A stretch of DNA of 64,000 nt from Thiomargarita sp. (GTDB taxonomy: Bacteria; Pseudomonadota; Gammaproteobacteria; Beggiatoales; Beggiatoaceae), in assembly GCA_022729575.1 (NCBI GenBank), contig DZAL01000002.1, positions 1 through 64,000 of the forward strand. The letters run 5' to 3'. Below the pieces are notes generated by a model, which ran no database searches, was not told the origin of the DNA, and saw only the letters and a list, made by a program, of their open reading frames with translations. This document shows, piece by piece, positions 9,207 to 54,593 of this stretch; positions within the stretch are counted from its first letter, which is position 1; every line of letters begins with the position of its first letter. The position numbers were made by a program, and so were the translations under genes.

Positions 9207-9232
9207 CCAGATTTGTGACCAGATTTGTGACC

Positions 9233-9355
9233 AGATTTGACAACTTTTCGAAAGTTGTCAAATCTCAATTTGTGACCAGATTTGACAACTTTTCGAAAGT
9301 TGTCAAATCTCAATTTGTGACCAGATTTGACAACTTTTCGAAAGTTGTCAAATCT
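9233..9355. repeat. Three tandem family A palindromes
   Basis: Three identical palindromes (AGATTTGACAACTTTTC plus complement) at 9233-9265, 9278-9310 and 9323-9355, period 45 bp, separated by CAATTTGTGACC. They fill the space between two convergent genes. The last base of copy 3 is part of the stop codon of the secretion ABC transporter. The hairpins could act as a shared two-way transcription end, though no T-run follows. Confidence 0.9.
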
Positions 9356-11517
9356 CAAACCATCTTAACCTTACCACTGGCTAACGCCTGAATCACCGAC
9401 TCTTTAGGCCCCATCGCCACCACTTTACCACCGTCGATGACGATTAAATGAGTGACTAGGGATAATAATGAGAAACGGTGAGTAACCAATAATAAAGTTT
9501 TAGCCTCTAACCAAGGTTGCAACCGGGCTTTTAATTGTTCTTCAGTATTATTATCCATCGAATTCGTCGGCTCGTCTAATAACAAAATTGGTGAGTTTAG
9601 CAACAACGCTCTGGCTAAAATAATGGCTTGTCGTTGGCCGCTGGATAAATTCTCACCCCGCTCTCCCACTGGCATATCGAATCCCAAGGGATGACGGTTG
9701 ACAAATTCATCGACCCCAGCCAATTGCGCCACGCTTAAAATTTGCGCATCTTCCACATAAGGCGCACCCAGCACTATATTATCCTTAACCGTACCATAAA
9801 ATAATTGACTATCCTGCGGCACATAACCTAAATTGCGTCGTAAATCTACCGGATCCAATTGGCGACTGTCCACTCCATCTAATAAAATACAACCTTGGTT
9901 GGGGGTGTATAGATTCAAAATTAATTTAGCGATGGTACTTTTGCCAGAGCCAATGCGGCCAATAATCCCGACTTTTTGGCCTGCCGTGATTTTAAACGAC
10001 ACTTGGTTCAAAGCTGACTGCGGTTGTTCTGGGTAAGAAAATTCCACCTCTCTAAATTCAATCTCCCCTTGTAACTGCGGACGGTGTAGAAAACTATGTT
10101 TAGGCGGACGTTCTAACGGCAGAGTCATAATGTGATTAAGTGAATGTAAAGCCGCTAACGATTGATGATAACGGGTTAATAAACTAGCCAAAGGGGCCAA
10201 AGGAGCTAAAGCCCGTCCGGTTAATAGAGTAGTAGCGATTAAACCACCGGTGGTCAATTGATTGTCGACAATGAGATACACGCCCGCAATGACTACAGCG
10301 ACGGTGGTCAGTTGTTGTACTAACCAGGTAAAATTGACCGAGAATGCCGATAAGAATCTGGACTTTAAACTAGATTGCGCAATTTGCCCAATCAGTTGCT
10401 CCCAACGTCGTTGCATCAAACCTTCCGCCCGCATCGTTTTTAAGTCTTCCAAACCAGTTAAAGTTTCCACCAATAACGCCTGTTTTTGGGCACTGGCGCG
10501 AAAAGTTTGTTGCACCACTTGGCGCAGTGGAATTTGAATGAGTAAACTGACGACTAAGACCAGTGGAATGACCAATAATGGAATCTCGGCTAACTGAGGA
10601 TGGATGGTCCAAACCACTGCGATAAAAATTAAGGCAAACGGTAAATCAATCAATGTGGTTAGCGTCGCTGAAGTGAAAAATTCGCGAAAGGCTTCAAATT
10701 CGTGTAAATGACTCGCAAAGGCCCCAACCGAGCGCGGATGGGCTTTTCGTTGGGTCCCCAAGACCTGTTCAAAAATCATGCTGGCCAGCAGAATATCCGA
10801 TTTTTTACCTGCTAAATCAATAAAATAGCCACGTAAAGTTCTCATCAAAAAATCAAAACCAAACACCACGGTTACGCCGATAGCTAACACCCAGAGCGTT
10901 TCTATGGCATGATTGGGCACTACCCGGTCATAGACATTCATAATAAATAAGGGAGAAGCGAGCGCAAATAAATTAATCAAAAAGGAGGCCAGGACAACTT
11001 CGCCATACCAGTACCAGGATTTAAGCAAAGTACCCCAAAACCAACTGAAAGGACGTGGCATGAGCGGGTCTTCAGTTCGAGCATCAAAAGTATATCTGGG
11101 ATGCGCAAACAGTGCATAACCGCTATAATTAGTTTTCAAATCCGACAATGAAATGTCTATCTCTCCCGCACCCGATTCTGGTAAAATAATCCGCAGGGTG
11201 TTTTTACGTTTATGCGTATATTTTAATAAGATACAAGCCTGTCCATCTTTGAGTAGTAACACCGCAGGTAAGACTAACTCATTAAATTGGGTAAGTGACC
11301 GTTTGAGCAAACGTGCTGACAACTGAGCACGGTCGGCAGCCCGAATGAACAATTCTGGGGTGAAGCGGTGATTAACGAGGGGCAAGCCCGCGCTTAAAGC
11401 CTCAGCCGAGTGCGGACGCTGAAGCAATTTAGTGAGGATGACTAAACACTGTAAAAGTGGATCGTCGAAAGTGAGGAGAAAATTCAAATCGTGGCTGGTG
11501 GAAGCGGTATCGATCAT
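9355..11517 (-). CDS. Type I secretion system permease/ATPase
   Basis: An ABC exporter of 720 residues that would drive secretion of RTX-type or adhesin proteins through a type I machine; the layout fits the LapB/LssB group. The N-terminal 150 residues form a degenerate C39-like domain. A transmembrane domain with several helices covers about 165-430. The nucleotide-binding domain has Walker A GRIGSGKST near 519-527, signature LSSGQRQAI near 624, Walker B ILLLDEPTN near 648 and the switch histidine in LVTHR. No HlyD-type adaptor, TolC or substrate gene lies next to it, so partners must be elsewhere. Its stop codon TGA (9355-9357) overlaps the last base of a palindromic repeat. The start ATG at 11517 is the first in frame. 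Confidence 0.9.
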   Translation of the reverse strand: MIDTASTSHDLNFLLTFDDPLLQCLVILTKLLQRPHSAEALSAGLPLVNHRFTPELFIRAADRAQLSARLLKRSLTQFNELVLPAVLLLKDGQACILLKYTHKRKNTLRIILPESGAGEIDISLSDLKTNYSGYALFAHPRYTFDARTEDPLMPRPFSWFWGTLLKSWYWYGEVVLASFLINLFALASPLFIMNVYDRVVPNHAIETLWVLAIGVTVVFGFDFLMRTLRGYFIDLAGKKSDILLASMIFEQVLGTQRKAHPRSVGAFASHLHEFEAFREFFTSATLTTLIDLPFALIFIAVVWTIHPQLAEIPLLVIPLVLVVSLLIQIPLRQVVQQTFRASAQKQALLVETLTGLEDLKTMRAEGLMQRRWEQLIGQIAQSSLKSRFLSAFSVNFTWLVQQLTTVAVVIAGVYLIVDNQLTTGGLIATTLLTGRALAPLAPLASLLTRYHQSLAALHSLNHIMTLPLERPPKHSFLHRPQLQGEIEFREVEFSYPEQPQSALNQVSFKITAGQKVGIIGRIGSGKSTIAKLILNLYTPNQGCILLDGVDSRQLDPVDLRRNLGYVPQDSQLFYGTVKDNIVLGAPYVEDAQILSVAQLAGVDEFVNRHPLGFDMPVGERGENLSSGQRQAIILARALLLNSPILLLDEPTNSMDNNTEEQLKARLQPWLEAKTLLLVTHRFSLLSLVTHLIVIDGGKVVAMGPKESVIQALASGKVKMV

Positions 11518-19395: not shown

Positions 19396-22300
19396 TCAAT
19401 AAGGTTTTTGTCCAATAAAGTTTCCTGGAGGATTATAATTACATACCCAGAGGATGCTACCATCATCACATTGTGCTTTACCACAACCAACTTCGCTAGA
19501 GTCACGCCAGACTAATTGGGTGTAGTGACCACACATTTTACCGGTTGCGCAGGTATTGGTGGCGTAATCGTAATCAGCAATTTCCTTGCCCCAAGAATCA
19601 ATTACTTGTTTGGGAGTAGGCGTGAAACCGCTAGCCCAGTAAATATTCTCGCCGGCGGTGTTGTTTGGACGATGTTCAAAGGCACAATCTCGTCCTTTAA
19701 GGGTATCGGCCCAGTCTTGTGCTAGGGTTGCCAGGTCAGTTGACCAAGTGAGAGCTGATACCTTGACTTGTTGTCGCCATTCATTGTGAGCCGCTAATGT
19801 GCCAGCAAATTCCGCCGGTTCATTGGTGGTAGTAGAATCACCCGTGGTGCTTTCTTCAGCCGCGGGTGTGGTAGTTTCTTCAGCAGGCGTGGTTTCCGTC
19901 TCAGTTGTCGTGGTGGTACCTACGGGCTGAGTCGGTTGTGGCGCGGTGAGTGTGTAATTACCTGCCACATCTCCTCCTAACATGGCCGAATAGTAATCTA
20001 AGAGTTGTCCTTGCTCATCCTCAAAAGCTAATTCCTCTACCATAAACTGAGGTGCTTGAGTAAAGGTAATAAAGCCGCGGTCATTCATTAACCAAAGGTC
20101 ATCTTGGCCTTCTAAACTAAAGGCTTGTGCATAAAAAGCGATGACATCTCCTGGTTGTAAAGACTGGGAGATTTTATCAAATTGCACTTGCCCCATATCG
20201 TTTTCGTCACCGTTATATAATATTTTGTAGGTACGAATGGCATGATTGACCACTTGATTATTGGCATCGACGATAATATCTAGGCGTGCCCATTCAATGG
20301 GATTGATGGGATTTCCTTGATTATCTTTGGCATATATTGGATTTCCTTGGTCGTCCTGCGCAATGGCTACCAATTCTCCTTTCGCATCGATGTTGATTTG
20401 TTTCGCCATCTCGGCTTTAATGTAATCAATTTCGCTAGAGTAATAGCTATAGGTCTGGCCGTCTTTTTTATACCGGTATTGAAACATCATCGGCATCCAT
20501 TCAGTTTCTTGCGCGGGGTCAAATTTGACGGTGTACCATTGTTGATTCCATTGCGGCGTGAAATAATAACCTGCGTTATCAGTCGGATAGGCTTCCACTT
20601 CCGCGGTTACCCAGAAATAATTGCTGGTCACTTCGTCAAAGGTCAGTGGCATGACATTTCCAAACAAGGTGGTCACACTGGTTAAGTGGTCGTCGTCAAA
20701 TTTAGCTACGATGCCATCGACATCGGCTAAGGTGGCTTGGGCACGTAATTTGTGATTAAAATCCACAAACGCGGTACGTTCGCCTTGTAGGAAGGAGGGT
20801 ACTGGACGGCGCGGCGCGGTGGAACTTTTAGCGGTGCCCTGGTCATCTTCCCACCAAGTCAAATCATCTTCGGTAAAAAGGCTGTCTTCATCAGTAAAAC
20901 TGCTTTCATTAAACCATTGGTCCGCAGTGGTATTAGAGTTTTGGTCGGTTACTGCGGGTGCCACTGTATCCCCGTTTTTAACCGCCAAAAAAGCGGTTTG
21001 AAAACTCTTAGCCGCTTCACTGAGAGGCGGTGCCTCTGCTTCTAATCCGCCGAAACTCACGCCATAAGAACGTGGTTTGCTACCATCTTGGTTTGAATAA
21101 ATTACATAATTGTCAATGGCGGTGATTAAGTTATCTAGGAGTTGCACTAAGACTTCGTTGTCGCCACTACCCAAGTAACCTTTAGTTAGTTGCGCAAAGT
21201 CTTTCCAATCAATCGAGGTTCGTTGATCGGCTTTGCTTTGCTTACCATAGTCGCGACTTTGAGTGGAGGCTTTGATTAAAGCCGTGGTCGAGGTGGCGGT
21301 GATACCAGCGGCGGCAAACGCATCAAATGCGGTCAGGACCTGGTTAAACTGGCTTAAGTCTGCTACTGATAACGTTTTGCCCTCTTGCACCGAGTCTGCT
21401 GAATAATTGTTGTTATCCACATAATTGTCGATAATGGCTTTGGCGACTTCAACTATTTCATCCTTCGCCGCATATTCTTTGATAACGGCAGTCCAATTCC
21501 AGCCATGCCCTGGTTCTAATTCTTCCGAAGCTAATAAATAGTTGGCATGGTTTTGAACTACGGGGGCAACTTCGGCGGAAGCCATCAGACAAGCATCAAA
21601 TCCAATCAGGTCAACTTGACCCAGACCGCCGTTGGTGAGGCTGTCATCAATTTCTTGCAGTGATAAACCGTCATCATCGAAATTTTCATCATTGCCAAAA
21701 CCGCCATAGGCCCCCCCATGGTCCCACAAAGTTAAAAAGCGGGTGGTATAGTCCGTATAACCTTCTTTCACATATTGAAGAAATAGAGTTAGAGAACTTT
21801 TATCACCCATGTGCGCACGATCTTCTTGGTAGAGATAATTTTCCAAATTACCAAAAATGCCATCTTGACTGTCTTCGATAATTTGAGTCATATCGGCAAA
21901 TTTCATTCCACGCCAACCGTCTTGATTAGCGCCACCAAAAGCGATGATGACATCTATCGAAGGATCACTCAGGGTTTGGTAGCCCTCAATCAATTCCTGT
22001 AAATCAGTGGTAGCCGCACTACCGCCACTTTCTAAATCACTGCCTACCATGTAAATCGCTAACAATTTACGATTGGCACCCGCGTGCGGTGACGGTGGCG
22101 TATAAGCGGCTAAGGTGCCATAACTGTCGGAAAAACCTGATGTATCACGACTGTCTAATTGTTTGACCAAGGTCCAGTAATAGCCGTCGGGGTCCTCCGG
22201 ATGGGAATGGGGGATATAATGCAGTACGGTGCTTGCTGTTTTACCTTTTAAGGAGAGATTTGGTAGCTTGGCTTCCCAAGGTTGTGTCACCTCCATTGCT

Positions 22301-22599
22301 CTAGAAATTCCTTTCTTGCGGTCAGGTGCAAGGGAGACGGTCACACAGGTTTGGGGATTCCAGGCGCAAGCATTGGTTTTAAACTCGTTTAAATCAAATT
22401 TCCATTCCTCAGACCCTATTACTGTCAGCTTGCCTTGGTACAAAAAACCATCGATAGCAATGCAGGGCAGGGTAATGTTTTGACTGGTATCCACCGTTGG
22501 ATTACCACATTCTTCTTGCGCAATTGCAAGGGTGGTCCCCAATCCTAACCCTATATTTAGGCTAAGAATAGCCACGGGTAATTTATATAAGTTCTTCAT
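19396..22599 (-). CDS. Secreted clostripain-like (C11) cysteine peptidase fused to a CAP domain
   Basis: An exported protein of 1067 residues. A signal peptide covers residues 1-27 (cut near AIAQE). The clostripain-type peptidase domain has the catalytic histidine H294 in LWDHGGAYGGFG and catalytic cysteine C337 in FDACLMASAE. A long beta-rich middle follows. A Thr/Glu/Pro-rich linker (TTTTTETETTPAEE and on, about residues 905-945) leads to a C-terminal CAP/SCP-PR1 domain of about 130 residues. That domain carries the signatures GHYTQLVWRDSSEVGCG and VCNYNPPGNF, with conserved cysteines. The linker suggests a cell-wall-distal secreted protein. The pairing of a C11 peptidase with a CAP domain is unusual. 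ATG 22599 has AAAGG upstream; the slightly longer start at 22626 lacks one. Target proteins are unknown. Confidence 0.87.
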   Translation of the reverse strand: MKNLYKLPVAILSLNIGLGLGTTLAIAQEECGNPTVDTSQNITLPCIAIDGFLYQGKLTVIGSEEWKFDLNEFKTNACAWNPQTCVTVSLAPDRKKGISRAMEVTQPWEAKLPNLSLKGKTASTVLHYIPHSHPEDPDGYYWTLVKQLDSRDTSGFSDSYGTLAAYTPPSPHAGANRKLLAIYMVGSDLESGGSAATTDLQELIEGYQTLSDPSIDVIIAFGGANQDGWRGMKFADMTQIIEDSQDGIFGNLENYLYQEDRAHMGDKSSLTLFLQYVKEGYTDYTTRFLTLWDHGGAYGGFGNDENFDDDGLSLQEIDDSLTNGGLGQVDLIGFDACLMASAEVAPVVQNHANYLLASEELEPGHGWNWTAVIKEYAAKDEIVEVAKAIIDNYVDNNNYSADSVQEGKTLSVADLSQFNQVLTAFDAFAAAGITATSTTALIKASTQSRDYGKQSKADQRTSIDWKDFAQLTKGYLGSGDNEVLVQLLDNLITAIDNYVIYSNQDGSKPRSYGVSFGGLEAEAPPLSEAAKSFQTAFLAVKNGDTVAPAVTDQNSNTTADQWFNESSFTDEDSLFTEDDLTWWEDDQGTAKSSTAPRRPVPSFLQGERTAFVDFNHKLRAQATLADVDGIVAKFDDDHLTSVTTLFGNVMPLTFDEVTSNYFWVTAEVEAYPTDNAGYYFTPQWNQQWYTVKFDPAQETEWMPMMFQYRYKKDGQTYSYYSSEIDYIKAEMAKQINIDAKGELVAIAQDDQGNPIYAKDNQGNPINPIEWARLDIIVDANNQVVNHAIRTYKILYNGDENDMGQVQFDKISQSLQPGDVIAFYAQAFSLEGQDDLWLMNDRGFITFTQAPQFMVEELAFEDEQGQLLDYYSAMLGGDVAGNYTLTAPQPTQPVGTTTTTETETTPAEETTTPAAEESTTGDSTTTNEPAEFAGTLAAHNEWRQQVKVSALTWSTDLATLAQDWADTLKGRDCAFEHRPNNTAGENIYWASGFTPTPKQVIDSWGKEIADYDYATNTCATGKMCGHYTQLVWRDSSEVGCGKAQCDDGSILWVCNYNPPGNFIGQKPY

Positions 22600-22670
22600 T
22601 TTATACCTTTTTGTTAGAAGTTTCACGATTAACCATTTGATTATAACACATCTTGAAAAATTTGTAACTC

Positions 22671-33665: not shown

Positions 33666-33888
33666 ATGAAATTTGGCTGAGAACTTAGGACTGCCAGTCC
33701 TGACCGCCTCAGAGAACTTAGGACTGGCAGTCCTTTGAGGACTACCAGTCCTGACCGCATCATCATCCACCTGTCATCACTAGCACTATTTTTCGCTTTC
33801 CTAAACGGCAAAGGTTTAGGAAATCTTAACCTTTGGTTGTTGATAACCCATTGAAGGTTAACACCTCCATTGGTTTGGAGGGACTACC
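33666..33888. repeat. Left direct repeat flanking the PIN/ATPase cassette
   Basis: This block holds family B palindromes (GGACTGGCAGTCC) and the right half of an E-family element, ending in GGTTTGGAGGGACTACC. The last 133 bp are identical to the block at 37677-37809. The upstream part differs mainly by lacking one 51-bp family B unit. It lies between plsC and the cassette. Confidence 0.9.
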
Positions 33889-33920: not shown

Positions 33921-34268
33921 ATGAAAATTCGTATTATTGACACTACCTATGAAAAGCAACACCAGGGTCTAATTAGTGAAAGTCCAGCATTAGGATTAGC
34001 CGGCACCGAAGCCATACCCATCCCCAATTGGGCTAACCAGGTGACTAAGCAAAGTTCATGGCAAGGTTGCCAATTTCCATTAGAACAACTCGAAATGTTG
34101 CTAGAGAAGATTCCTTATAGCATCTCAGAAAAAGAGAGAAATATGGTGCGATGGACCATCGATGAGCAAGATTTAGAAGTTGATCTGTCTATCGTCTTGG
34201 CAGTATTAGGCCGCGATTTCTTAATACTTAATCCAGAAGCGAAAAAATTCGTCCTAACCTTGGAGTAA
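33921..34268 (+). CDS. Small protein of unknown function, first gene of cassette
   Basis: I do not recognise this 115-residue protein. It has no signal peptide or membrane helix. The C-terminal half (DEQDLEVDLSIVLAVLGRDFLI) looks helical with a hydrophobic core. The gene starts at ATG 33921 and ends 4 nt before the next gene, so the two are almost certainly translated together. It may be an adaptor, antitoxin or sensor of the cassette; this is inference from position only. Confidence 0.8.
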   Translation: MKIRIIDTTYEKQHQGLISESPALGLAGTEAIPIPNWANQVTKQSSWQGCQFPLEQLEMLLEKIPYSISEKERNMVRWTIDEQDLEVDLSIVLAVLGRDFLILNPEAKKFVLTLE

Positions 34269-34272
34269 AGCC

Positions 34273-36303
34273 GTGGCTATCCTCGAAATTAAATCTGGAG
34301 ATTACATTTTTGGTATAGAGTATACCACGTCAAATAATCAGAAACAACACCATGAACTGGGTATTCTCAGAGTCTTTCCATTCGAGTCAGGCTCCCCAAA
34401 AACTGGCCAATGGCATGTACAATTCAATACGACTGATCAGCAGCCGATAAAAGAGGTCATCATTAGCATAGCTGCTCGCTTGGGATTACTACCAGTACAC
34501 TTCATTGAGGAGTTTAAACAAGCACTACTATCACCGCGTCCCCTCTGTTTAGTGGCAGATACCTCGTCCCTACATCACGGTAGCCTGGTACAAGCCTGTC
34601 GCCTGCGAAAAGGTAAACCCACTCATCTGGTTATTCCAGACCAAGTTTACATGGAAATCCAAAGACAACGAGAACGATATAGTTCACGTCAAAATAAACC
34701 TGAGCATGACTCGGTAATCGCTACCGCAACCAGCCACCAGGTTCCCCAAACTACGACGACCGCACTATTTAATAGTATGCAAGTTTCTACGGTGCGTAGT
34801 TTAACCGGTAAGATTGATCAGCAGGATGACACTCATTGGTCCGAATGGTTGAAAGCACGCCGTTCTCAAAGTATGCAAGTAGCCGCCGCTCGTTCCGTGC
34901 GCAGATTAAAAGAATTGGGAATGATACCTCATTATATCCGTCCACCAGATGCGATGGTACGTTATTTTGGTTCGGCGAGTGGTACTGGGGAACAAACCGA
35001 ACCATCTTTTAAAGATGGCCCCAATTATCACAGAGATCGTTTGATACTAGAGGCCGCCAGAGTGCAACGGATGTTGTTACCCACGGTGCCTGTTTGGTTA
35101 GTCACTGGGGATGCTAATCTGGCGATACAAGCTAAACTAGAAGATTTTCAGGTAGGATATTCCTGGTTGCCCAAATTTCAACCAGCCAGTCAGGTAATTC
35201 TTACCTCACCTTATTTTGAACCTTATACCTTGACACCACAATTTTTAACCATCGAAGAATTTTTAGAAGAATGGTTATGGCATTGGGAAACTATAATGTT
35301 GCAACGGTCTGGCAAAGGTGAAAGAACTATTTGGGAACTGCCTCCTAGACAGTCTCGTGAAAGAGTTCAACTGCAACTCAGTCAGCCCTCTTCAAATTTA
35401 ATTAAATCAACTACCAGTAAATGTCCACGTCGCCAAATAGGGGGAGTTTTTAATCAGGTCAGCGATAACAATAGTTCCAAAGTCTCCGTGCCAGCCAGAG
35501 CGCCCACGGTATCCAATTTACTGCAAGGATTGCAACGGTTAGCTGGAATTGACACGGTTGACGCTCACAAGCCTATCGCCCCAGAGGTAGTTTCCTATCT
35601 ATGTGGTCTGAAATGGGCACGAAAAACGGATTCTCTGAAAATTACCGAGCGGGGTAGAAATTTGGCAGAGCGTTGGAATCAGCTAACTGCCGATATGGTG
35701 GTAGAATGGTATGACTGGATATATGATGCCAGTCAAGATTTATTATCGTTATTACCCCAACCAAAAATTTTGGACGCACTCCTCCTCTCAAAATCGTTAT
35801 TACCCCAACCAAAAATTTTGGACGCACTCCTCCTCTCAAAATGGCAAGGTGATAATGAGCTAGCTGACCAAATTAATGAGAGCGAGCGGAATATTGAAAG
35901 TCAATCCAGGTTGGCTAATGCGTTTGGTTTAATCGTTCGTTTGAATGGTAAATCCTATAAGACTGAATGGAAAACTCCTCAAGAGGCCGCGGATTTGATT
36001 TTTGATACCGCTACTCAGCTACAGCAACAAATTAGTCACAGCAGTGCAGTACCAGTAGGTAAGGTATTTACTCACTTACTGACGACTGAAGGAGCGCTAT
36101 CGTTACCCGATTTTCGCAGGGGATTGTTTGAATTATACACCACTAAGCGAATTATTCTAAGTGGTACGGTGCCTGACAAAAATTCGGTAAAAATTAAAGT
36201 ATTAGTGCCTCACCACCAAACCGAACTATTGGAGGTTAACCTGGGGGTTGGTGATTTTTTGATTCCCAACCAACCTAGCCAAGTCATCATTTTGGAGAAA
36301 TAA
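34273..36303 (+). CDS. PIN-like nuclease protein, second gene of cassette
   Basis: A 676-residue cytoplasmic protein with a PIN-like nuclease region at about 90-300. Acidic residues fit the PIN active site: D96 in CLVADTSSL, E128 in DQVYMEIQ, D255 in YHRDRLILEAA and D280 with N282 in VWLVTGDANLA. PIN domains cut single-stranded RNA or DNA with Mg2+/Mn2+. The region after residue 330 is unfamiliar and could bind the partner ATPase or a substrate. At residues of about 492-523 a 16-residue block is exactly duplicated (SLLPQPKILDALLLSK twice), from a 48-bp tandem DNA copy. The start is GTG 34273. The stop is 1 nt before the ATPase gene. Confidence 0.82.
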   Translation: MAILEIKSGDYIFGIEYTTSNNQKQHHELGILRVFPFESGSPKTGQWHVQFNTTDQQPIKEVIISIAARLGLLPVHFIEEFKQALLSPRPLCLVADTSSLHHGSLVQACRLRKGKPTHLVIPDQVYMEIQRQRERYSSRQNKPEHDSVIATATSHQVPQTTTTALFNSMQVSTVRSLTGKIDQQDDTHWSEWLKARRSQSMQVAAARSVRRLKELGMIPHYIRPPDAMVRYFGSASGTGEQTEPSFKDGPNYHRDRLILEAARVQRMLLPTVPVWLVTGDANLAIQAKLEDFQVGYSWLPKFQPASQVILTSPYFEPYTLTPQFLTIEEFLEEWLWHWETIMLQRSGKGERTIWELPPRQSRERVQLQLSQPSSNLIKSTTSKCPRRQIGGVFNQVSDNNSSKVSVPARAPTVSNLLQGLQRLAGIDTVDAHKPIAPEVVSYLCGLKWARKTDSLKITERGRNLAERWNQLTADMVVEWYDWIYDASQDLLSLLPQPKILDALLLSKSLLPQPKILDALLLSKWQGDNELADQINESERNIESQSRLANAFGLIVRLNGKSYKTEWKTPQEAADLIFDTATQLQQQISHSSAVPVGKVFTHLLTTEGALSLPDFRRGLFELYTTKRIILSGTVPDKNSVKIKVLVPHHQTELLEVNLGVGDFLIPNQPSQVIILEK

Positions 36304-36304
36304 T

Positions 36305-37465
36305 ATGGGATTTCTAAAGTTAGACGACAACCACCAATCAACAATTGTGGTGACTCCAAACTATGAGAAGTTAAGTTATTTAAAAAATCCTTTTCCTCCC
36401 AAGGGCCAAGTATGTCATGAAGTTTATGTAGAACGACCGGAATTAAACGAATTAAGTCGTGCTTTACATAGTTTTCTGTCTGGTCGTAAATCAGGTGGAT
36501 TCTGGGTCATAGAAAGTGAACGTGGCGTGGGTAAGAGTAATTTCTTAAAACATCTGGAATGGGAATTTAACCAAGCCTACAGTAATGGCCAATTAGAAGG
36601 GACGGTACACCAATATATTCCAGGTCCACAGGTTGAAGCACAACTACTGGTCGAATACCTACTGCAAGCGATTGGGGAAGAGCGGTTTCACCGCTTGTTG
36701 AAAACCGGCGTATCTCTGCCTGAATCTTCTAAAGGCACGGATTTATACCGCTTTATCTCTAGCCTGAAAACAGCAAAAATGGTTACCTCAAAACCACTAC
36801 CTTCACAACCGCCGTTGTTTGGCGAACCGCAACCTGCGGAACAACCAGAAGAGGATTTATGGTTAGAACCTACTACTTTTTTAATACGGTGGTTAGCAGG
36901 ACACCAAACTTACACCAAAGAGCGGGAGCATTATAATATCTGGTCAAAAGACCGGATGCCCCCAGCGGTAGCCTTTCCCTATTTAAGACTGTTGGTAGAG
37001 GAGATGGGACATCACCAAATTCTCCAACGCATTGTGTTATTGTTGGACGAATTTGAAGATATACAGGTGTTAAATAATCAGGCTCAATCTGAATATATTT
37101 TAGCCTTAAAGAATTTACTCAACTGCTTTAACTGGCAAGGATTATTCGTGATTATCGCCGGCCAAGCTGGTGCTTTTAGTGCGATTGGTAGTCGCTACAC
37201 CTCTTTTTCTGACCGATGGGAACGTGCTAACTTGAGACCGCTACAAAACCACGAGGATGCTGTGAAATTGGCTAGGGCTTATATGGAATTTGCTCACCAA
37301 GAATATCTCAAGCGGAATCGTAGTAAAAAACCACTACCGGTAGAAAAGTTGGAGCCTTCCGAGAAGGACCTCAGAATCTTTGTAAATGCCGATACACCAA
37401 TTACTCAGAGGAATTTTCTGCAAAAGTTGCATGAATGGATTGAACAAAAGTGTTTGCCAAACTAA
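36305..37465 (+). CDS. P-loop ATPase, third gene of cassette
   Basis: A 386-residue AAA-type ATPase. The opening YLKNPFPPKG resembles the N-terminus of ORC/Cdc6- and TniB-like ATPases. Walker A is S71-E-R-G-V-G76-K77-S78; the first position is Ser rather than Gly/Ala. Walker B is LLLDEFEDI with D248-E249. A sensor-like stretch FVIIAGQ and an arginine-rich SDRWERANLRPL follow, then a C-terminal lid. It probably powers or gates the PIN nuclease encoded by the gene 1 nt upstream. I cannot assign it to a named defence family. Confidence 0.85.
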   Translation: MGFLKLDDNHQSTIVVTPNYEKLSYLKNPFPPKGQVCHEVYVERPELNELSRALHSFLSGRKSGGFWVIESERGVGKSNFLKHLEWEFNQAYSNGQLEGTVHQYIPGPQVEAQLLVEYLLQAIGEERFHRLLKTGVSLPESSKGTDLYRFISSLKTAKMVTSKPLPSQPPLFGEPQPAEQPEEDLWLEPTTFLIRWLAGHQTYTKEREHYNIWSKDRMPPAVAFPYLRLLVEEMGHHQILQRIVLLLDEFEDIQVLNNQAQSEYILALKNLLNCFNWQGLFVIIAGQAGAFSAIGSRYTSFSDRWERANLRPLQNHEDAVKLARAYMEFAHQEYLKRNRSKKPLPVEKLEPSEKDLRIFVNADTPITQRNFLQKLHEWIEQKCLPN

Positions 37466-37535: not shown

Positions 37536-37809
37536 ATGAAATTTAGGTGAGAACTTAGGACTGGCAGTCCTTTGAGGACTGCCAGTCCTGACCGCCTCAA
37601 AGAACTTAGGACTGGCAGTCCTTTGAGGACTGCCAGTCCTGACCGCCTCAGAGAACTTAAGACTGCCAGTCCTGATCGCATCATCATCCACCTGTCATCA
37701 CTAGCACTATTTTTCGCTTTCCTAAACGGCAAAGGTTTAGGAAATCTTAACCTTTGGTTGTTGATAACCCATTGAAGGTTAACACCTCCATTGGTTTGGA
37801 GGGACTACC
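37536..37809. repeat. Right direct repeat flanking the PIN/ATPase cassette
   Basis: This is the same sequence and orientation as 33666-33888 but with one extra 51-bp family B unit, so three units instead of two. It runs right up to the argH stop codon (37810). The direct orientation would allow loss or gain of the 3.6-kb cassette by homologous recombination. Confidence 0.9.
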
Positions 37810-43115: not shown

Positions 43116-43568
43116 TCATTTCAAAGCCAATTCCACTTCTTCTTTATAGAGCCGAATAGATTCATCAATGATTGGGTTGTTTGGCATTCCATCGGTTAAA
43201 TTTTCCGCTTGCCAAACTTCGCTGAACAGGGAAATAGTGGGAATCGAAAGCCCCTTCTCTTGCGCGAGGAGGTAAAGTTTTTTGATCACAAAATAAGAGT
43301 GACTGGCTAAGAAAAACTGAATACCCTCTTCCGCCAACTTGGCGATGATGTCAAGTAATTGCGAGATCGCCTTTGGGTGCAGAGCTGATTCTGGTTCATC
43401 CATAAAAATTACCGAATTTTTATCTAGGTAGCGATTGCCAAGTAACGTATCAAGGATAGCAATTTTTTTAATGCCTTCTGCCGTTACTCCAATCGGAAAC
43501 TTTTGATTGCCTGTTCTAAATTGCCAGCGACTGGAAGCGTCGTCATATTCAACTTTGCCACCAAACAT
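43116..43568 (-). pseudogene. C-terminal fragment of an OLD/AAA-type ATPase
   Basis: A 150-residue frame with only the second half of a SMC/ABC-type ATPase: Walker B SVIFMDEPESALHP and the His-loop FFLASHSYFV. The Walker A half is missing. The frame stays open to about 43632 upstream but then runs into repeat sequence. Family members with this layout act in defence (OLD, AbiEii-linked) or repair. It is most likely a remnant after deletion or insertion. Confidence 0.75.
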
Positions 43569-43694
43569 ATCATCGAGGCGGTGCCGGGACTGGGAGGGCA
43601 GTTTAGCACTTCGCTTTCTCCTCCTCCTTACTCAAGTCTTTCCCCCCTCCTTACTCAAGGAGGGGTAGGGGGTGGTTAACGTACTGACACTAGC

Positions 43695-46600
43695 CTACTC
43701 CTTCGGTTTCTCCACTCGCGAAGCCGATTCATCTCTTTCTGCTTCATCCATAATTTCGCTACCAGTTACCTCGCTAGATAAATCGGTTTTTAATCTAATG
43801 CCACGCCGGGATTGAAATTTTTTCTTAGACATTTTAGCACCGCTCATCTGCGAATAAGTATCAGGTCGTGCTGAAGCCGCTAAATCGTCACCGTCTTCAC
43901 TGTCATCATGAGGAATTATTAGCATCTCCATTGACGGCAGATTAACCGGCTGGGATTTCTCCTCATCACTGGTTACGGCCGCTATGGTAGGTGAAACGGC
44001 TACTACTGATACCGGCGGTGGTGGTAGAGGGTCCAGATTTGACAACTTTTCGAAAGTTGTCAAATCTAAAGTTGTCAAATCTTCAGTAGGTGGCGGTGGT
44101 GACGTTGGCCCAACCGGTGGCACCACACTACTAGGTGCCGGTGGTGCTGGCGTTACTGGTGGCACCGGCGTTACTGGTGGCGCTGGAGGCATAGACCGCG
44201 GTGGTATCGGTGGTTGTGCCGAGGCTTTAATTTTACTCCATAGCCCTTCCAACAGACTGAATAACAGGAGGAAAATGCCGCGAATCAGATAGAACATCAT
44301 CGTCACTATATTGATGATGTTGATAATTAAGTTAATGATGAAACTCCACAGCCGGAGCCATAACGGGAGTTTGTAAACGGTCTCTGGGACTTTGGGATGG
44401 AGATTTTTCGCGTCGAGATTAGGCAACTGTTCGAAAGTGGTCAAATCTTCTCGAGAGGCACACAACGCTTTTGGTCCAATACTGATACAACCCAGTGGAA
44501 TGACTACCAAGGTTAATAGAGTAGAAACTAACACGCCAAAGAGCAGAGAAATGGCCATGCCTTGGAAAATCGGGTCAAATAAAATGACTCCGGAGCCTGC
44601 GACTAAGGCAAACGCAGTAATCAAAATAGGGCGAGTCCGCGTTTTACAAGCGAGAATCACGGCATCTTGAATACAAGTGCCTTTTTGAATTTCGTGGATT
44701 GAGTAATCTACTAACAAAATAGAATTACGCACAATAATTCCTGCCAACGCAATCCAACCAATCATCGAGGTGGCGGTAAATGCCGCATTCAGTGCCCAGT
44801 GGCCAGGAATGATTCCCAGCAAAGTGAGTGGAATGGGGACCATGATAATGGCGGGGACAATAAAGTTCCCAAACAGCCATACGACTAGAATATAAATTAA
44901 CACCATGGCGGCGGCAAATGCCAGTCCCATGTCACGGAAAGTTTCATAAGTGACGGTCCATTCGCCGGTCCATTCAAACCCAGATTGACCATATTCCTTG
45001 GGTGGGCCCAGATAGCGGTTACAAAGCGGAATCAATTGAAAATAGGTGTGACAACCGCTTTCCCGTAAATCAATACCGTCGGGGGTGCGATAATCGGTTA
45101 ATTGAGCTTCAATTTCGCGCATTCCATAAATCGGGGCGCTGAGATGATATTGGTTGGTGGCGACATCATATACACCTACGGAATCGCCCACCACATATTC
45201 AACTGGTCGTAAGTCTTTTTGATAGTAAATAGGGTGTTGTTTGAGTTTTTGGAACCGTCCTAATTCAGCCAAGGGTACGGTGGTACCGGTGGTGGTAGGA
45301 ATGGGTAAATCGTATAAACGATTAAGTTGGGACCGGACCGCCAGTGGTACTTGCATGACCATGTAAGTTGGTTCCAAACGAGTCCCTCGTTTAATGTCGC
45401 CTAGTTTAAATCCACCCATGGCCATGGCTAAGTTTTGGTTAATCACATCGATGGCAATGCCACGCCGCACGGCTTTTTCGGTATCCACGTCGAAGCGCCA
45501 AATTCCATGTTCTTTGGCCATATAATTGTCAACATCATCGAGGATCTCGGCATCTTCAAATAACTTGGTCATGTGGTTAGCCACTTGACGGCGAGTTGCA
45601 TCATCAGGACCATAAATTTCGGCTACAATGGATTGCAACACGGGTGGTCCAGGGGGCATTTCGACCACGGCAATTTTGGCCGGACTCTTCATTTCGAGCA
45701 GCACTGCTTTTAACATGCGCCGGGTATCTAAAGCCATTTCATGGCTGCTACGGTGGCGGTCGGTTTTATCTTTAAGTTGGACGTGAATATCAGCCTGCCA
45801 AGGAGATTGACGCATATAGTAGTGTCGTACCATGCCGTTAAAATCAAAGGGTTGGGAGGTGCCGACATAGGTTTGCAAAGCGGTCACTTCGGGCATTTCA
45901 CGCAGTTTTTCCGCAAAGGTCAGGGTGAGATTAGTCGTTTCTAAGAGCGCAGTACCTTCTGGCATGTGGATAAATACGTTAAATTCTGGTTTGTTGTCCA
46001 GCGGTAACATTTTCACTTCGACGTGTTGGGTGTAAAACATGGATAACGCGGCGAAAAAGGAGATGATGAGAACGATTAAAAATAAACCGCCTTTGAGCTT
46101 GCTGTTAAACAATGGCGGTAACAGTTTGCGGAAAAACCGTTCGAGTTTTTCATTAAAGTGATGCTCTTTCTGTTCAGCTTTGCGCAAGGCGGCTATCGAT
46201 GGTTTAATCCGCATGGCTAACCAGGGGGTGAAGATGAAGGCGGCAAACAGTGAAAAAATCATGGCCACGGAACCTAACGCGGGGATGGGTTCCATATAGG
46301 GTCCCATCATGCCAGAGACAAAGCCCATCGGGAGTAAGGCGGCAACCACGGTGAAGGTGGCTAAAATGGTGGGATTGCCGACTTCACGCACGGCATCGAC
46401 TGCGGTATCGGTATCGGTTTCCCCTTTGAGGAGCCAACGGCGATAGATATTTTCGATGACGACAATGGCATCGTCCACCAGGATGCCAATAGAGAAAATC
46501 AGGGCAAATAAACTAACACGGTCAATGGTATAGCCGAGCAACCAGGCTGCGAATACGGTAATTAAAATGACCACTGGAATGACTAGGGTGACGACAATCG

Positions 46601-49849: not shown

Positions 49850-50474
49850 TCACCAGAATAGTCATTGTCACGCGGTTATTCTACGCTATTTCGCGAAAAA
49901 TTGCCGAGCCAATGGCTAGTATTCAAAAATTTTTTTAAAATCAAACTTTTTAGCCAGCCCTTCATTTATAATATCAACTTGCCTAGCGACTTAAATATGA
50001 GGCAGACACGCTCATTTTAAAACCAATGCTTAAACTAAAAAATGCTTTGTTCTATATTTGCTCTATACTGGATAGTGTTTTAAACCATTATATTTGTAAT
50101 GATAAACGAATCTACAATCATTTTTAATCAGGTCAACAATTAATGATAATTCTACCAATAAAGTATTAGCCTATTGAAATAAATTAATCGGTTATCCTGC
50201 ATAAATAAATTTTTTCTGTTAAGCTATTTTTTATTTAATTTTAAAAATATTAACGACAGATTTATTTTAGGGCAAATACCTTTTCCAAGTCTATACGGTC
50301 CACCACCCCATTTGTGTTTATGTCAATTCATGTCATTTGTGGCTAAATGTTAAAAGCACATAAGACAATAGTGAGTATAGTATTTTTAAAAACCATGGCT
50401 ATTGTTGATCCATGATCTCATTAATTTCATAATTGTTCAATCATTTAACTAACTTTAAAGGAAATCTATATTCT
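49850..50474. other. AT-rich intergenic region
   Basis: A 625-bp space without coding sequence or known repeats, between divergent genes. On the minus strand it may produce the transcript that ends at the hairpin at 49806-49849. AAAGGAA at about 50457 is the ribosome-binding site of the next gene. Confidence 0.6.
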
Positions 50475-52286
50475 ATGAGTTTTATCACTGTAGGCAATGC
50501 GTTAGGTTGTACCATCAACTCTCACCGTCGTGGCTGGGACGGTAGCATTTGTAAAAATGCCGAAACCTGGAATTGCTCCGCCAAACAACAATTTCGAACA
50601 GATTATTGTCAACAAGGTGATCCCCGTTGTTACCATATCCATATTTTTGAAGAAGGCAATCCCTATTGTCTAATCGACGACTTAGGAATTGGGTGGTTAC
50701 TGGAACCTTACCCTGAAGCCCTCAATAATCAGATTTTACTGTTTTGGGGTAAACGTTTTCAAGAGCCTCGTGGCATTAGTGACATTAATACCAGACCAAA
50801 GGATTATGTATTTGGTGCTTATCGCGTGCAAAGCGTCTATCCACAAAAAATTAATGAATTTAAAACTTTGTGGAAAATAGAACCTTATCCTGATGGTTGG
50901 ACACGTTTTCAGCAACCCTATATACTGACAGTCTATTATAAAAGTATTATCGGTGGGGTATATCTAAAAGAAGTCAACCGTGTAGCAGTAGAAAATATGT
51001 TTGAGAAAGCGGCAGAGCAGGCTCGTAGTCCTCATCCTAACTGGTTTACCAGCAAAGATGCCGAGCGATTTGAGTATTTTCATGCTCATTTACACGAATG
51101 GTTTGAACAGGCCCGCGAAGATGCGTTGAAATTACAACAAAACATGGTACATACCTATACCAAACCTTCCTCATTACTGTCGTCGGTAGTAAAGAATCCA
51201 TTTGTGGATGGACTGAAAGGGATCGAACTAAAAAAGACCACGATAACACCTACGAGCATCGTGGCACCTATAGCGTTAACGCCTAAGCCGGTGGTGTCTG
51301 CTAAAATGGACGCACCGGCTTATCCTTTGATCGAAAAAGATACCACTAAGGACCGAATAAAAACGGTTTATAGTAAAGAAACTTTAGATGCTTTGATGGC
51401 CGCGTCGTTAACCAAGAATATTGTGATCTTGACAGGTTCCCCTGGCGTAGGTAAAAGCAGTTTAGCCATTGATTTAATAGATGACTCGGAACGTAAATTA
51501 ATTGTGGCAGTGGGATCCACTTGGCGAGGACGTGAAGATTTGTTAGGTTATGTGAATCCGATTAGCAACGAATTTGAACCGACCGATTTTACTCGTTTTC
51601 TTTATAAAGCCGAAAATACTTGGCGTAAAAATGACAAACGTACTCATATGGTGGTTTTCGAAGAATTTAATTTAAGTCAACCAGAATATTGGTTTGCCGA
51701 TATGTTAGTACGATCCCAATATCCAGAAGACCAAGAAAAACTAAGAACTATTGAATTTGGTGGTAAATGTATTCGTGGTGTCACTACCAATGGCAGTAGA
51801 ATTTTTATTTCACCAGCACTGCGATTTGTAGCTACCATTAACAATGATCATACTACACTGTCCTTGTCACCACGAGTCTTAGACCGAGCCTCGATCATTG
51901 AGTTAACTTTAGAACCGCGCTACACTTTGGAACGGGCTAAACTCGAATTGGACGAAAAACAAATTATGTCCATTGAGGAGCTAGATGCACTACTCAAATA
52001 TAAGAATGCGATGTTTTCCTTACGTGCGGCCGAATCGCTCAAACGTTGCATCGATAATCTACATTTATTAGACATGAACAGCACTTGGGATGCCTTAGAC
52101 ATCATACTACATCAACAGGTACTGACCAAAGTGCGATTAATGGTCGGCGATCCAGCGAATGATAGCCTGATGCAAGGTTTAGAAGATTGGAGTGAGAGTT
52201 ACGGCAAGTATCTGCGTAAATGTGCCACCTTGATTGATGGCTGGACTGAAGCGTTAAAGGATGGACGAGATGTGATTCAGGCGTAA
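50475..52286 (+). CDS. McrB-like AAA ATPase with Cys-rich N-terminal domain
   Basis: A 603-residue cytoplasmic protein. Residues 1-200 form an unfamiliar domain opening with SHRRGWDGSIC and six spaced cysteines (C12, C26, C34, C45, C52, C65) that could bind zinc or an iron-sulfur cluster. A linker follows. The AAA_5/dynein-like ATPase resembles McrB and MoxR: Walker A GSPGVGKS at 321-328, Walker B VVFEEFN near 393-398, ATINNDHTTLSLSPRVLDR with a sensor Asn and arginine finger. McrB uses GTP to drive the McrC nuclease against modified DNA. No McrC-like nuclease is next to it. ATG 50475 has AAAGGAA; a TTG at 50433 is less likely. The role in defence is inference. Confidence 0.83.
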   Translation: MSFITVGNALGCTINSHRRGWDGSICKNAETWNCSAKQQFRTDYCQQGDPRCYHIHIFEEGNPYCLIDDLGIGWLLEPYPEALNNQILLFWGKRFQEPRGISDINTRPKDYVFGAYRVQSVYPQKINEFKTLWKIEPYPDGWTRFQQPYILTVYYKSIIGGVYLKEVNRVAVENMFEKAAEQARSPHPNWFTSKDAERFEYFHAHLHEWFEQAREDALKLQQNMVHTYTKPSSLLSSVVKNPFVDGLKGIELKKTTITPTSIVAPIALTPKPVVSAKMDAPAYPLIEKDTTKDRIKTVYSKETLDALMAASLTKNIVILTGSPGVGKSSLAIDLIDDSERKLIVAVGSTWRGREDLLGYVNPISNEFEPTDFTRFLYKAENTWRKNDKRTHMVVFEEFNLSQPEYWFADMLVRSQYPEDQEKLRTIEFGGKCIRGVTTNGSRIFISPALRFVATINNDHTTLSLSPRVLDRASIIELTLEPRYTLERAKLELDEKQIMSIEELDALLKYKNAMFSLRAAESLKRCIDNLHLLDMNSTWDALDIILHQQVLTKVRLMVGDPANDSLMQGLEDWSESYGKYLRKCATLIDGWTEALKDGRDVIQA

Positions 52287-53267: not shown

Positions 53268-54593
53268 ATGAACACTGACCATTTAGAATTTACGGGGGAG
53301 TTTGCTAAATCTTATGAATTAATGGAGCAAACTAAGCAATGTATCTTTATCACGGGCAAAGCGGGTACGGGGAAGTCGAGGTTGTTGCTATATTTTAAAA
53401 CTAACACCAGTAAAAAGGTGGTGGTGTTGGCACCTACGGGCGTAGCAGCACTGAATGTGGAGGGGGCAACGCTACATTCGTTTTTTCGATTACCTCCTCG
53501 TCCGATTCATCCTGATGAAATCAAAGCAGTGTCACCGAAGAAACGGAAGTTATATCAAACAATTGATGCTATTGTCATCGATGAAGTTTCTATGGTCCGG
53601 GCCGATTTGATCGACGTGATAGACCGTTTTCTGCGTTTAAATGGGAAAGACCGCTTGAAGCCTTTTGGTGGTATCCAAATGATTTTCATTGGCGATTTGT
53701 TTCAACTCCCACCAGTCGTTTCTAGCAATGAGGAGGCTAAGTTATTTGCGACCGGTTATCGTAGCCCGTTCTTTTTCGATGCTCACGTCTTTCAAGAAAC
53801 TCTCTTGCGGACGATGGAACTGACGAAGGTTTATCGGCAACAGGAGCCAGATTTTATTAAGTTGCTGAATGCCATTCGTAACAATCAGGCTAATCTTTCT
53901 GAGATTCAGCAGATTAATCAACGTTATCAGCCGCAGGTGGAGGCTAACGTCAATGATTATTATCTCACTTTAACCACTACCAATCAACTGGCCGCTAATA
54001 TTAATACTGCGCATTTGGCGCAACTCTCGGCGCCGGCTTATCAATTTGAAGGTGCCTTTGAGGGTAAATTTGAAACTGGTAATCTGCCCACGGAGGAGGT
54101 ATTGATTCTCAAAGAAGGGGCACAGGTGATGTTTGTCAAAAATGATAGTGACCGTCGTTGGGTCAATGGCACTTTGGGAAAGGTTAAAAAACTTGACCAG
54201 AATAAGATTGTGATAGAAACTGCCGACCACGACAGCTACTCGGTGGAGCCAGTCAAGTGGGAAATCTTGAAATATCAGTTCGATGAGGGGGCGCAAACCG
54301 TGACGACAGAAGTCACGGGTTCATTTAAACAATATCCTCTCCGGTTGGCTTCGGCCATAACTATTCATAAGAGCCAGGGTAAGCAATTTGATAAGGTGGT
54401 GATAGATTTAGGCAGTGGTGCTTTTGCCCATGGTCAACTTTATGTGGCTCTTTCTCGCTGTAGAACTTTAGCTGGACTGGTTCTTAAACGTCAGGTACGT
54501 CTTCAAGATGTGATTGTGGATAAACGGGTAGTGGAATTTTGTGCTTCGTGGAACCAGCCAAATTTCGAAAATCAAAAAGGCCGTAACCAATGA
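53268..54593 (+). CDS. Pif1-family DNA helicase
   Basis: A 441-residue superfamily 1B helicase. Walker A GKAGTGKS (30-37), motif Ia VLAPTGVAALNV, Walker B VIDEVSM with D105-E106, motif III FIGDLFQLPPV, motif V AITIHKSQGKQFDKVVIDLG and motif VI YVALSRCR are all present. Pif1 helicases unwind G-quadruplexes and R-loops with 5'-3' polarity. In bacteria many copies are accessory, on mobile elements or in defence loci. The stop codon overlaps the ATG of a transposase fragment (ATGA). The ribosome-binding site is poor. It lies 1 kb of repeats downstream of the McrB-like gene. Confidence 0.9.
   Translation: MNTDHLEFTGEFAKSYELMEQTKQCIFITGKAGTGKSRLLLYFKTNTSKKVVVLAPTGVAALNVEGATLHSFFRLPPRPIHPDEIKAVSPKKRKLYQTIDAIVIDEVSMVRADLIDVIDRFLRLNGKDRLKPFGGIQMIFIGDLFQLPPVVSSNEEAKLFATGYRSPFFFDAHVFQETLLRTMELTKVYRQQEPDFIKLLNAIRNNQANLSEIQQINQRYQPQVEANVNDYYLTLTTTNQLAANINTAHLAQLSAPAYQFEGAFEGKFETGNLPTEEVLILKEGAQVMFVKNDSDRRWVNGTLGKVKKLDQNKIVIETADHDSYSVEPVKWEILKYQFDEGAQTVTTEVTGSFKQYPLRLASAITIHKSQGKQFDKVVIDLGSGAFAHGQLYVALSRCRTLAGLVLKRQVRLQDVIVDKRVVEFCASWNQPNFENQKGRNQ

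What the first reader, a model, noticed from the sequence alone, without database searches (positions are those of the whole stretch)
33921..37465. Three-gene PIN nuclease / P-loop ATPase cassette of unknown function
Three genes with gaps of 4 and 1 nt encode a small unknown protein, a 676-residue protein with a PIN-like site (D96, E128, D255, D280) and an AAA-type ATPase (K77-S78, D248-E249). None matches a system I can name. A nuclease joined to an ATPase and a small partner, at an accessory locus between housekeeping genes, fits an anti-phage or plasmid defence module. The function is inference; the domains are seen in the sequence.
Basis: partly seen in the sequence, partly recalled or inferred. 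Interest (0 to 1): 0.85.

Follow-up and report, generated by a model that had tools for sequence, protein, structure and literature searches.

The report
PIN nuclease–AAA ATPase three-gene cassette
Three adjacent genes (a small protein, a DNA/RNA-cutting enzyme of the PIN class and a molecular motor related to those of known anti-virus systems) travel together through a few giant sulfur bacteria and one plant-symbiont plasmid, and probably form an undescribed, not yet tested defence module.

Summary
Genes at 33921-34268, 34273-36303 and 36305-37465 encode a 115-aa unknown, a 676-aa PIN protein (PIN_4, E 7e-7) and a 386-aa P-loop ATPase. The same trio, in the same order, sits at unrelated sites in three other genera of the family, with the named active-site residues invariant. 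Far more divergent trios occur in Thiomargarita nelsonii, another family member, and an Ensifer plasmid beside a methylase/DUF499/SNF2 BREX-related locus. The trio is patchy (type I in 4 of 43 genomes of the order; absent from roughly 400-genome samples of class and phylum, and from phages), so accessory. The ATPase is linked to the BrxC/BrxD-SngB clade; relatives lie in haloarchaeal DpdA-type clusters and, beside another PIN gene, in an SspABCD locus. T. nelsonii lost genes 1 and 2 of one trio and kept the ATPase. In the window the cassette lies between 99%-identical copies of a dispersed 149-nt repeat. Best reading: an undescribed nuclease-effector module, probably anti-phage or anti-plasmid, in which the ATPase licenses the PIN enzyme. 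Defence is inferred; five of six informative copies lie outside defence islands. Structure models failed.

The parts
33921..34268 (+). Gene 1: small protein, 115 aa, no known family
   Evidence: orthologues 44-46% and 35% identical; no hit in Pfam, PADLOC, NCBIfam or PHROGs; coding substitution pattern
34273..36303 (+). Gene 2: 676-aa PIN nuclease with a long C-terminal region
   Evidence: PIN_4 E 7.4e-7; orthologues 48-52% identical
34552..35151 (+). PIN domain, residues 94-293 (D96, E128, D255, D280), with an insertion between E128 and D255
34720..34842 (+). Insertion of about 40 residues private to the window protein
   Evidence: Gap in the three orthologues
35745..35840 (+). Perfect 48-nt in-frame tandem duplication (16 aa), absent in relatives
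35977..36204 (+). Possible winged helix (residues about 569-644) in the C-terminal region
   Evidence: Weak: order helix-strand-helix-helix-strand-strand; most of it is the only stretch of the model with pLDDT about 60-76; one family member touches GMT-wHTH at E 0.048
36305..37465 (+). Gene 3: 386-aa BrxD/ORC-like AAA ATPase with an N-terminal NPFP motif
   Evidence: AAA_22 E 2e-5; profile link to the PF10923 clade through relatives
36515..36538 (+). Walker A SERGVGKS (residues 71-78, K77-S78)
37046..37051 (+). Walker B D248-E249
33740..33888 (+). Upstream copy of the dispersed 149-nt repeat
37661..37809 (+). Downstream direct copy of the same repeat, 99% identical; ends at the argH stop codon

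Best explanation
The trio is one horizontally moving, undescribed effector module. Gene 2 is a metal-dependent PIN nuclease held in check in the resting cell. Gene 3 is a BrxC/BrxD-SngB-type AAA+ ATPase that probably oligomerises on nucleic acid or on an invader-derived signal. Gene 1 is the small partner that docks gene 2 to gene 3 or restrains it. On infection or plasmid entry the ATPase would change the gene 1/gene 2 complex so that the PIN site cuts nucleic acid, most likely RNA as in VapC-type PIN enzymes, and stops the invader or the cell. Shown: gene order, conservation, PIN and ATPase motifs, patchy distribution, clade of the ATPase (through relatives), joint loss of genes 1 and 2 in one genome. 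Inferred: complex formation, trigger, substrate, and that the benefit is defence.
For: Trio in the same order in G028, G039 and G040 with unrelated neighbours. Divergent trios in T. nelsonii C345 and G041 and on Ensifer pT173c with 4-nt overlaps. Profile links between the subfamilies: gene 3 type I-II 1e-22, I-Ensifer 3e-11, II-Ensifer 2e-15; gene 2 type I-II 5e-7, II-Ensifer 3e-8. Patchy: type I in 4 of 43 genomes of the order, none elsewhere among 369 of the class or 398 of the phylum. ATPase clade: haloarchaeal relatives match PF10923 BrxC_BrxD (1e-16 to 1e-19), BrxD and SngB and align with gene 3 at 4.5e-8 (type I) and 4e-14 (type II); they lie in plasmid clusters with a DpdA-like transglycosylase. 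The Ensifer trio abuts SNF2/DUF1156-methylase/DUF499 genes, which resembles the 'Type-1 BR' systems of PMC12839542. In G117 a PIN gene and a related ATPase sit inside an SspABCD-like locus. PIN enzymes are proven anti-phage effectors in systems DS-3 and DS-5 of PMC13092281.
Against: Of the six copies with readable flanks, five are among ordinary genes; only Ensifer is in a defence-like island. No copy was found in phage records or in any plasmid but Ensifer's. No model of a defence system matches. Direct matches of the window ATPase to BrxD are only E 0.035-0.1. The PIN acidic set is incomplete in Ensifer. Both structure predictions failed (pLDDT 33 and 43).
Confidence: 0.55

Rival explanations
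1. Three-component toxin-antitoxin-like module: gene 2 is a PIN ribonuclease toxin of the VapC kind, gene 1 its antitoxin, gene 3 a chaperone-like ATPase; it is kept by addiction or general stress response rather than by phage defence.
For: PIN domain; small upstream partner in every copy; genes 1 and 2 were lost together in T. nelsonii while the ATPase stayed (L020), as expected if the toxin and its partner go as a unit; in the sister genome G020 a VapBC-like pair lies downstream of the same plsC gene.
Against: Gene 1 does not match any antitoxin family and its sequence is not alignable between subfamilies; the 600-670-aa nuclease and dedicated AAA ATPase are unlike VapBC.
Confidence: 0.2
2. 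Non-defensive RNA or DNA metabolism module, for example an ATP-driven nuclease for RNA processing or repair, acquired by a few large sulfur bacteria.
For: PIN domains also serve RNA processing and DNA repair (general knowledge); most copies sit among housekeeping genes.
Against: Absent from 39 of 43 genomes of the same order, with different insertion sites and a clean partial loss in T. nelsonii; ATPase relatives cluster with DNA-modification defence genes.
Confidence: 0.2
3. Chance neighbours, or remnants of a mobile element, with no joint function.
For: Cassette lies between two copies of a dispersed repeat.
Against: Same order in three subfamilies too divergent to be recent copies, tight spacing or 4-nt overlaps, purifying pattern in all three genes.
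Confidence: 0.05

Closest known systems
BrxD / BrxC of BREX (PF10923) and SngB of Shango
   Same: AAA+ ATPase of the ORC/Cdc6-like BrxC/BrxD clade, standalone size like BrxD; linked through haloarchaeal relatives
   Different: No PglZ, PglX, BrxHI, SngA or SngC among the trio genes; partner is a PIN nuclease; direct match weak
SspABCD-associated PIN + ATPase pair in genome G117
   Same: PIN-like gene directly upstream of a BrxD/TniB-like ATPase, with an unassigned 369-aa gene in front
   Different: Embedded in a phosphorothioation locus (SspD/BrxP-like, SspB, SspC, cysteine desulfurase); separate short PIN-like protein recognised by motif only; its ATPase is closer to the archaeal ones (4e-10) than to gene 3 (1e-3)
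Haloarchaeal DpdA-type clusters (tRNA-guanine transglycosylase + 300-aa protein + 'BREX ATP-binding' ATPase)
   Same: ATPase homologous to gene 3 (4.5e-8 type I, 4e-14 type II)
   Different: No PIN; 300-aa partner shows no detectable similarity to gene 2
DS-3 and DS-5 PIN systems (PMC13092281)
   Same: PIN nuclease as an anti-phage effector, in DS-5 with a required second protein
VapBC toxin-antitoxin
   Same: PIN nuclease with a small upstream partner
   Different: VapC is about 130 aa without a long C-terminal region or ATPase partner

Membership tests
PIN-domain nuclease (PIN_4) | Significant family match and the acidic active-site set | tested here: met
   PIN_4 30 bits, above cut-off; D96/E128/D255/D280 invariant in close orthologues; the E position is not kept in Ensifer
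BrxC/BrxD (PF10923) ATPase clade | Match to PF10923 above cut-off | tested here: inconclusive
   Window protein below detection; Ensifer trio ATPase E 6e-4 (19.3 of 22.2 bits); haloarchaeal relatives 1e-16 to 1e-19; the link is by profile comparison
BREX system | PglZ, BrxC/PglY and a methylase or PAPS reductase in the locus | tested here: not met
   None seen among the ORFs near the window copy or in L016-L018 and L033 (by reading the ORFs, not by profile)
Shango | SngA (TerB-like), SngB ATPase, SngC helicase | tested here: not met
   No PADLOC match of the window proteins to SngA, SngB or SngC
VapBC toxin-antitoxin | Short PIN toxin with a recognised antitoxin family upstream | tested here: not met
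   Gene 1 matches no family; gene 2 is 676 aa
Any known anti-phage system | PADLOC model match for the whole set | tested here: not met
   Best matches E 0.016-0.046; type II ATPase 3e-5 to PifA over a P-loop stretch only; Ensifer trio none
Any known anti-phage system | Protection against phage | not testable with these tools
   Needs a wet-lab test

The most novel reading that the evidence does not exclude
A so far undescribed family of defence systems (small adaptor, long PIN nuclease, BrxD-like ATPase) with at least three ancient subfamilies. It would show that BREX-, Ssp- and Dpd-type ATPases were also recruited, without any DNA modification gene, to control a PIN nuclease.
Probability: 0.45. 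Interest if true: 0.72.

Novelty: new variant of a known kind. Interest (0 to 1): 0.58.

Why it matters
If it is a defence system, it joins an ATPase clade known from modification-based immunity (BREX, Ssp, Shango, perhaps Dpd) to a PIN nuclease without any modification enzyme. How BrxD-type ATPases work is an open question, and a three-gene system would be a simple setting in which to test it. It would also be a defence unit that usually lies outside defence islands, where neighbour-based discovery misses it.

Tried and rejected
Solved-structure sequence searches gave only chance hits. The idea that the C-terminal half of gene 2 equals the 300-aa haloarchaeal partner or the 369-aa G117 protein was tested by profile comparison and not supported (E 0.25-0.57). 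Homology of gene 1 between subfamilies: not detectable; only position and rough size are shared. Weak phylum-wide ATPase hits (15-23 bits) cover only the P-loop stretch and were rejected; the G235 hit lies in a glycogen phosphorylase-like gene, rejected. Viral contigs: none. The first scan of genome contigs with a single sequence found nothing. Rfam: nothing near the cassette. Literature searches found no paper that describes the trio.

Full report
OBSERVATION. Gene 2 matches Pfam PIN_4 (residues 94-293, 30 bits, E 7.4e-7, above the curated cut-off) and gene 3 AAA_22 (E 2e-5, just below it); gene 1 matches nothing. Codon-position differences between L016 and L017 show purifying selection on all three genes, the 110-codon first gene included.

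THE UNIT RECURS. In the order of the host, 4 of 43 genomes carry gene 2, each with gene 1 before it and gene 3 after it: the window, a 'Candidatus Parabeggiatoa' MAG (L016; title), a Thiotrichaceae MAG (L017 = L019) and a complete genome G040 (L018). The neighbours differ each time: plsC/argH; a RecD-like helicase; bioC/bioH-like genes and a hemerythrin; leuS and an rRNA-methylase-like gene (gene names by reading). The host family is thus the Beggiatoa/Thiomargarita group (inferred from relatives' titles).

DIVERGENT SUBFAMILIES. A profile of gene 3 found a second, much more distant kind: T. nelsonii contig C345 (L034) and genome G041 (L033). There too the order is small protein, about 670-aa PIN protein, about 385-aa ATPase. 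Profile comparison joins the ATPases at 1e-22 and the PIN proteins at 5e-7, but the small proteins not at all. tblastn from this kind found a third on plasmid pT173c of Ensifer canadensis (L060): 126 + 662 + 402 aa with 4-nt overlaps. Its ATPase joins the others at 3e-11 and 2e-15, its PIN protein joins type II at 3e-8. D96, D255 and D280 are kept in all six PIN proteins compared; the E128 position is not acidic in Ensifer as aligned. Three subfamilies so far apart, in one order, make chance adjacency very unlikely.

DISTRIBUTION. No other trio was found among 369 genomes of the class (gene 2) or 398 of the phylum (genes 3 and 2), in phage records, in viral contigs, or in 72,556 plasmids apart from Ensifer's. 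This is the pattern of a rare accessory cassette. Other phyla could not be sampled.

GAIN AND LOSS. In T. nelsonii Hydrate Ridge (L020) the chromosomal neighbourhood is that of L017, but genes 1 and 2 are gone: after bioC come about 13 nt of unrelated sequence and then the last bases of gene 2 (ATTCCGGTGGAGAACGCCGCATGA) running into an intact gene 3. The orphan ATPase has lost two residues just behind the otherwise invariant NPF motif, yet its dN/dS against L017 (0.40) is only slightly above its neighbours' (0.14-0.38), so decay is not proven. The same genome keeps a type II trio elsewhere. In G041 gene 2 is broken by two frameshifts with sequence conserved on both sides: decay or sequencing error.

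THE ATPASE POINTS TO DEFENCE SYSTEMS. Type II gene 3 finds haloarchaeal plasmid proteins annotated as BREX ATP-binding; two of these were scanned and match PF10923 BrxC_BrxD, BrxD and SngB well, and the set of four aligns with the trio ATPases at 4.5e-8 (type I), 4e-14 (type II) and 2e-5 (Ensifer). All four examined lie directly downstream of a DpdA-like transglycosylase and a 300-aa protein, on plasmids with queuosine-type genes, helicases or a PLD protein. A weaker relative (borderline to gene 3, 4e-10 to the archaeal ones) lies right behind a PIN-like gene inside an SspABCD-like locus in G117. The Ensifer trio abuts SNF2, DUF1156-methylase and DUF499 genes, which resembles the Type-1 BR systems described in PMC12839542. 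BrxD is described there as a standalone ORC-Cdc6 AAA+ ATPase whose role is uncharacterised.

MECHANISM. Shown: nuclease domain, ATPase domain, one conserved unit, gene 1 present wherever gene 2 is. Inferred: gene 3 oligomerises and senses or remodels; gene 1 couples or restrains; gene 2 cuts. PIN domains as anti-phage effectors have been proven by mutation in DS-3 and DS-5, where DS-5 needs a second protein and is likely not a toxin-antitoxin pair (PMC13092281). That precedent makes an RNase effector plausible; DNA cleavage is not excluded. A winged helix near the C-terminus of gene 2 is only hinted at.

THE INSERTION. In the window the cassette lies between two direct copies of a 149-nt repeat (33740-33888, 37661-37809; 99% identical). 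The repeat has about a dozen further near-full copies in the genome, all at most 95% identical to it, and shorter copies bring the matches to 61; several copies carry an inverted 31-nt end about 120-150 bp away, as in MITE-like elements. The two flanking copies are closer to each other than the upstream copy is to any other, which fits duplication with insertion, or gene conversion. The second copy ends at the argH stop codon. L016 also has a shorter (37-nt) repeat pair around its trio; L017, L018, L033 and L060 have none. gmhB-plsC is conserved in 24 of the other loci tested, but argH is never next to it there; in G020 a VapBC-like pair lies downstream of plsC.

VERDICT. Defence is the likeliest function (about 0.55) but rests on the company the ATPase clade keeps, not on a test.

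Noticed in passing
window 33740-33888 and 37661-37809; other copies in G000: Dispersed 149-nt MITE-like intergenic repeat, 61 matches in the genome; the pair around the cassette is 99% identical.
   Followed up: partly
window 33687-33762 and 37557-37701: Palindromic 51-nt tandem units (AGGACTGGCAGTCCTTTGAGGACTGCCAGTCCT) next to the repeat, fewer upstream than downstream.
   Followed up: no
window 35745-35840: Perfect 48-nt in-frame tandem duplication in gene 2; could be recent or an assembly artefact.
   Followed up: no
L038 969-4009 (genome G117): 369-aa protein, PIN-like protein (226 aa) and BrxD/TniB-like ATPase (409 aa) inside an SspABCD-like phosphorothioation locus; the first two match no library model.
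   Followed up: partly
L061-L064, around 8000-11150: Haloarchaeal plasmid triplet: DpdA-like transglycosylase, 300-aa unknown protein, BrxD/SngB-like ATPase.
   Followed up: partly
L020 7921-7963: T. nelsonii deletion of genes 1 and 2 with a 13-nt filler; ATPase left alone, missing two residues at its NPFP motif.
   Followed up: yes
L033 6211-8248: Type II gene 2 broken by two frameshifts.
   Followed up: partly
window 43116-43712: Remnant of an AAA_21 ATPase with stop codons, one of 89 AAA_21 matches in this genome.
   Followed up: no
window 50433-52286 and 53268-54593: 617-aa AAA (McrB-like by eye) ATPase and a 441-aa Pif1-like helicase; not examined.
   Followed up: no
window 19396-22626: 1076-aa protein with a clostripain-like peptidase and a C-terminal CAP domain (by eye).
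   Followed up: no
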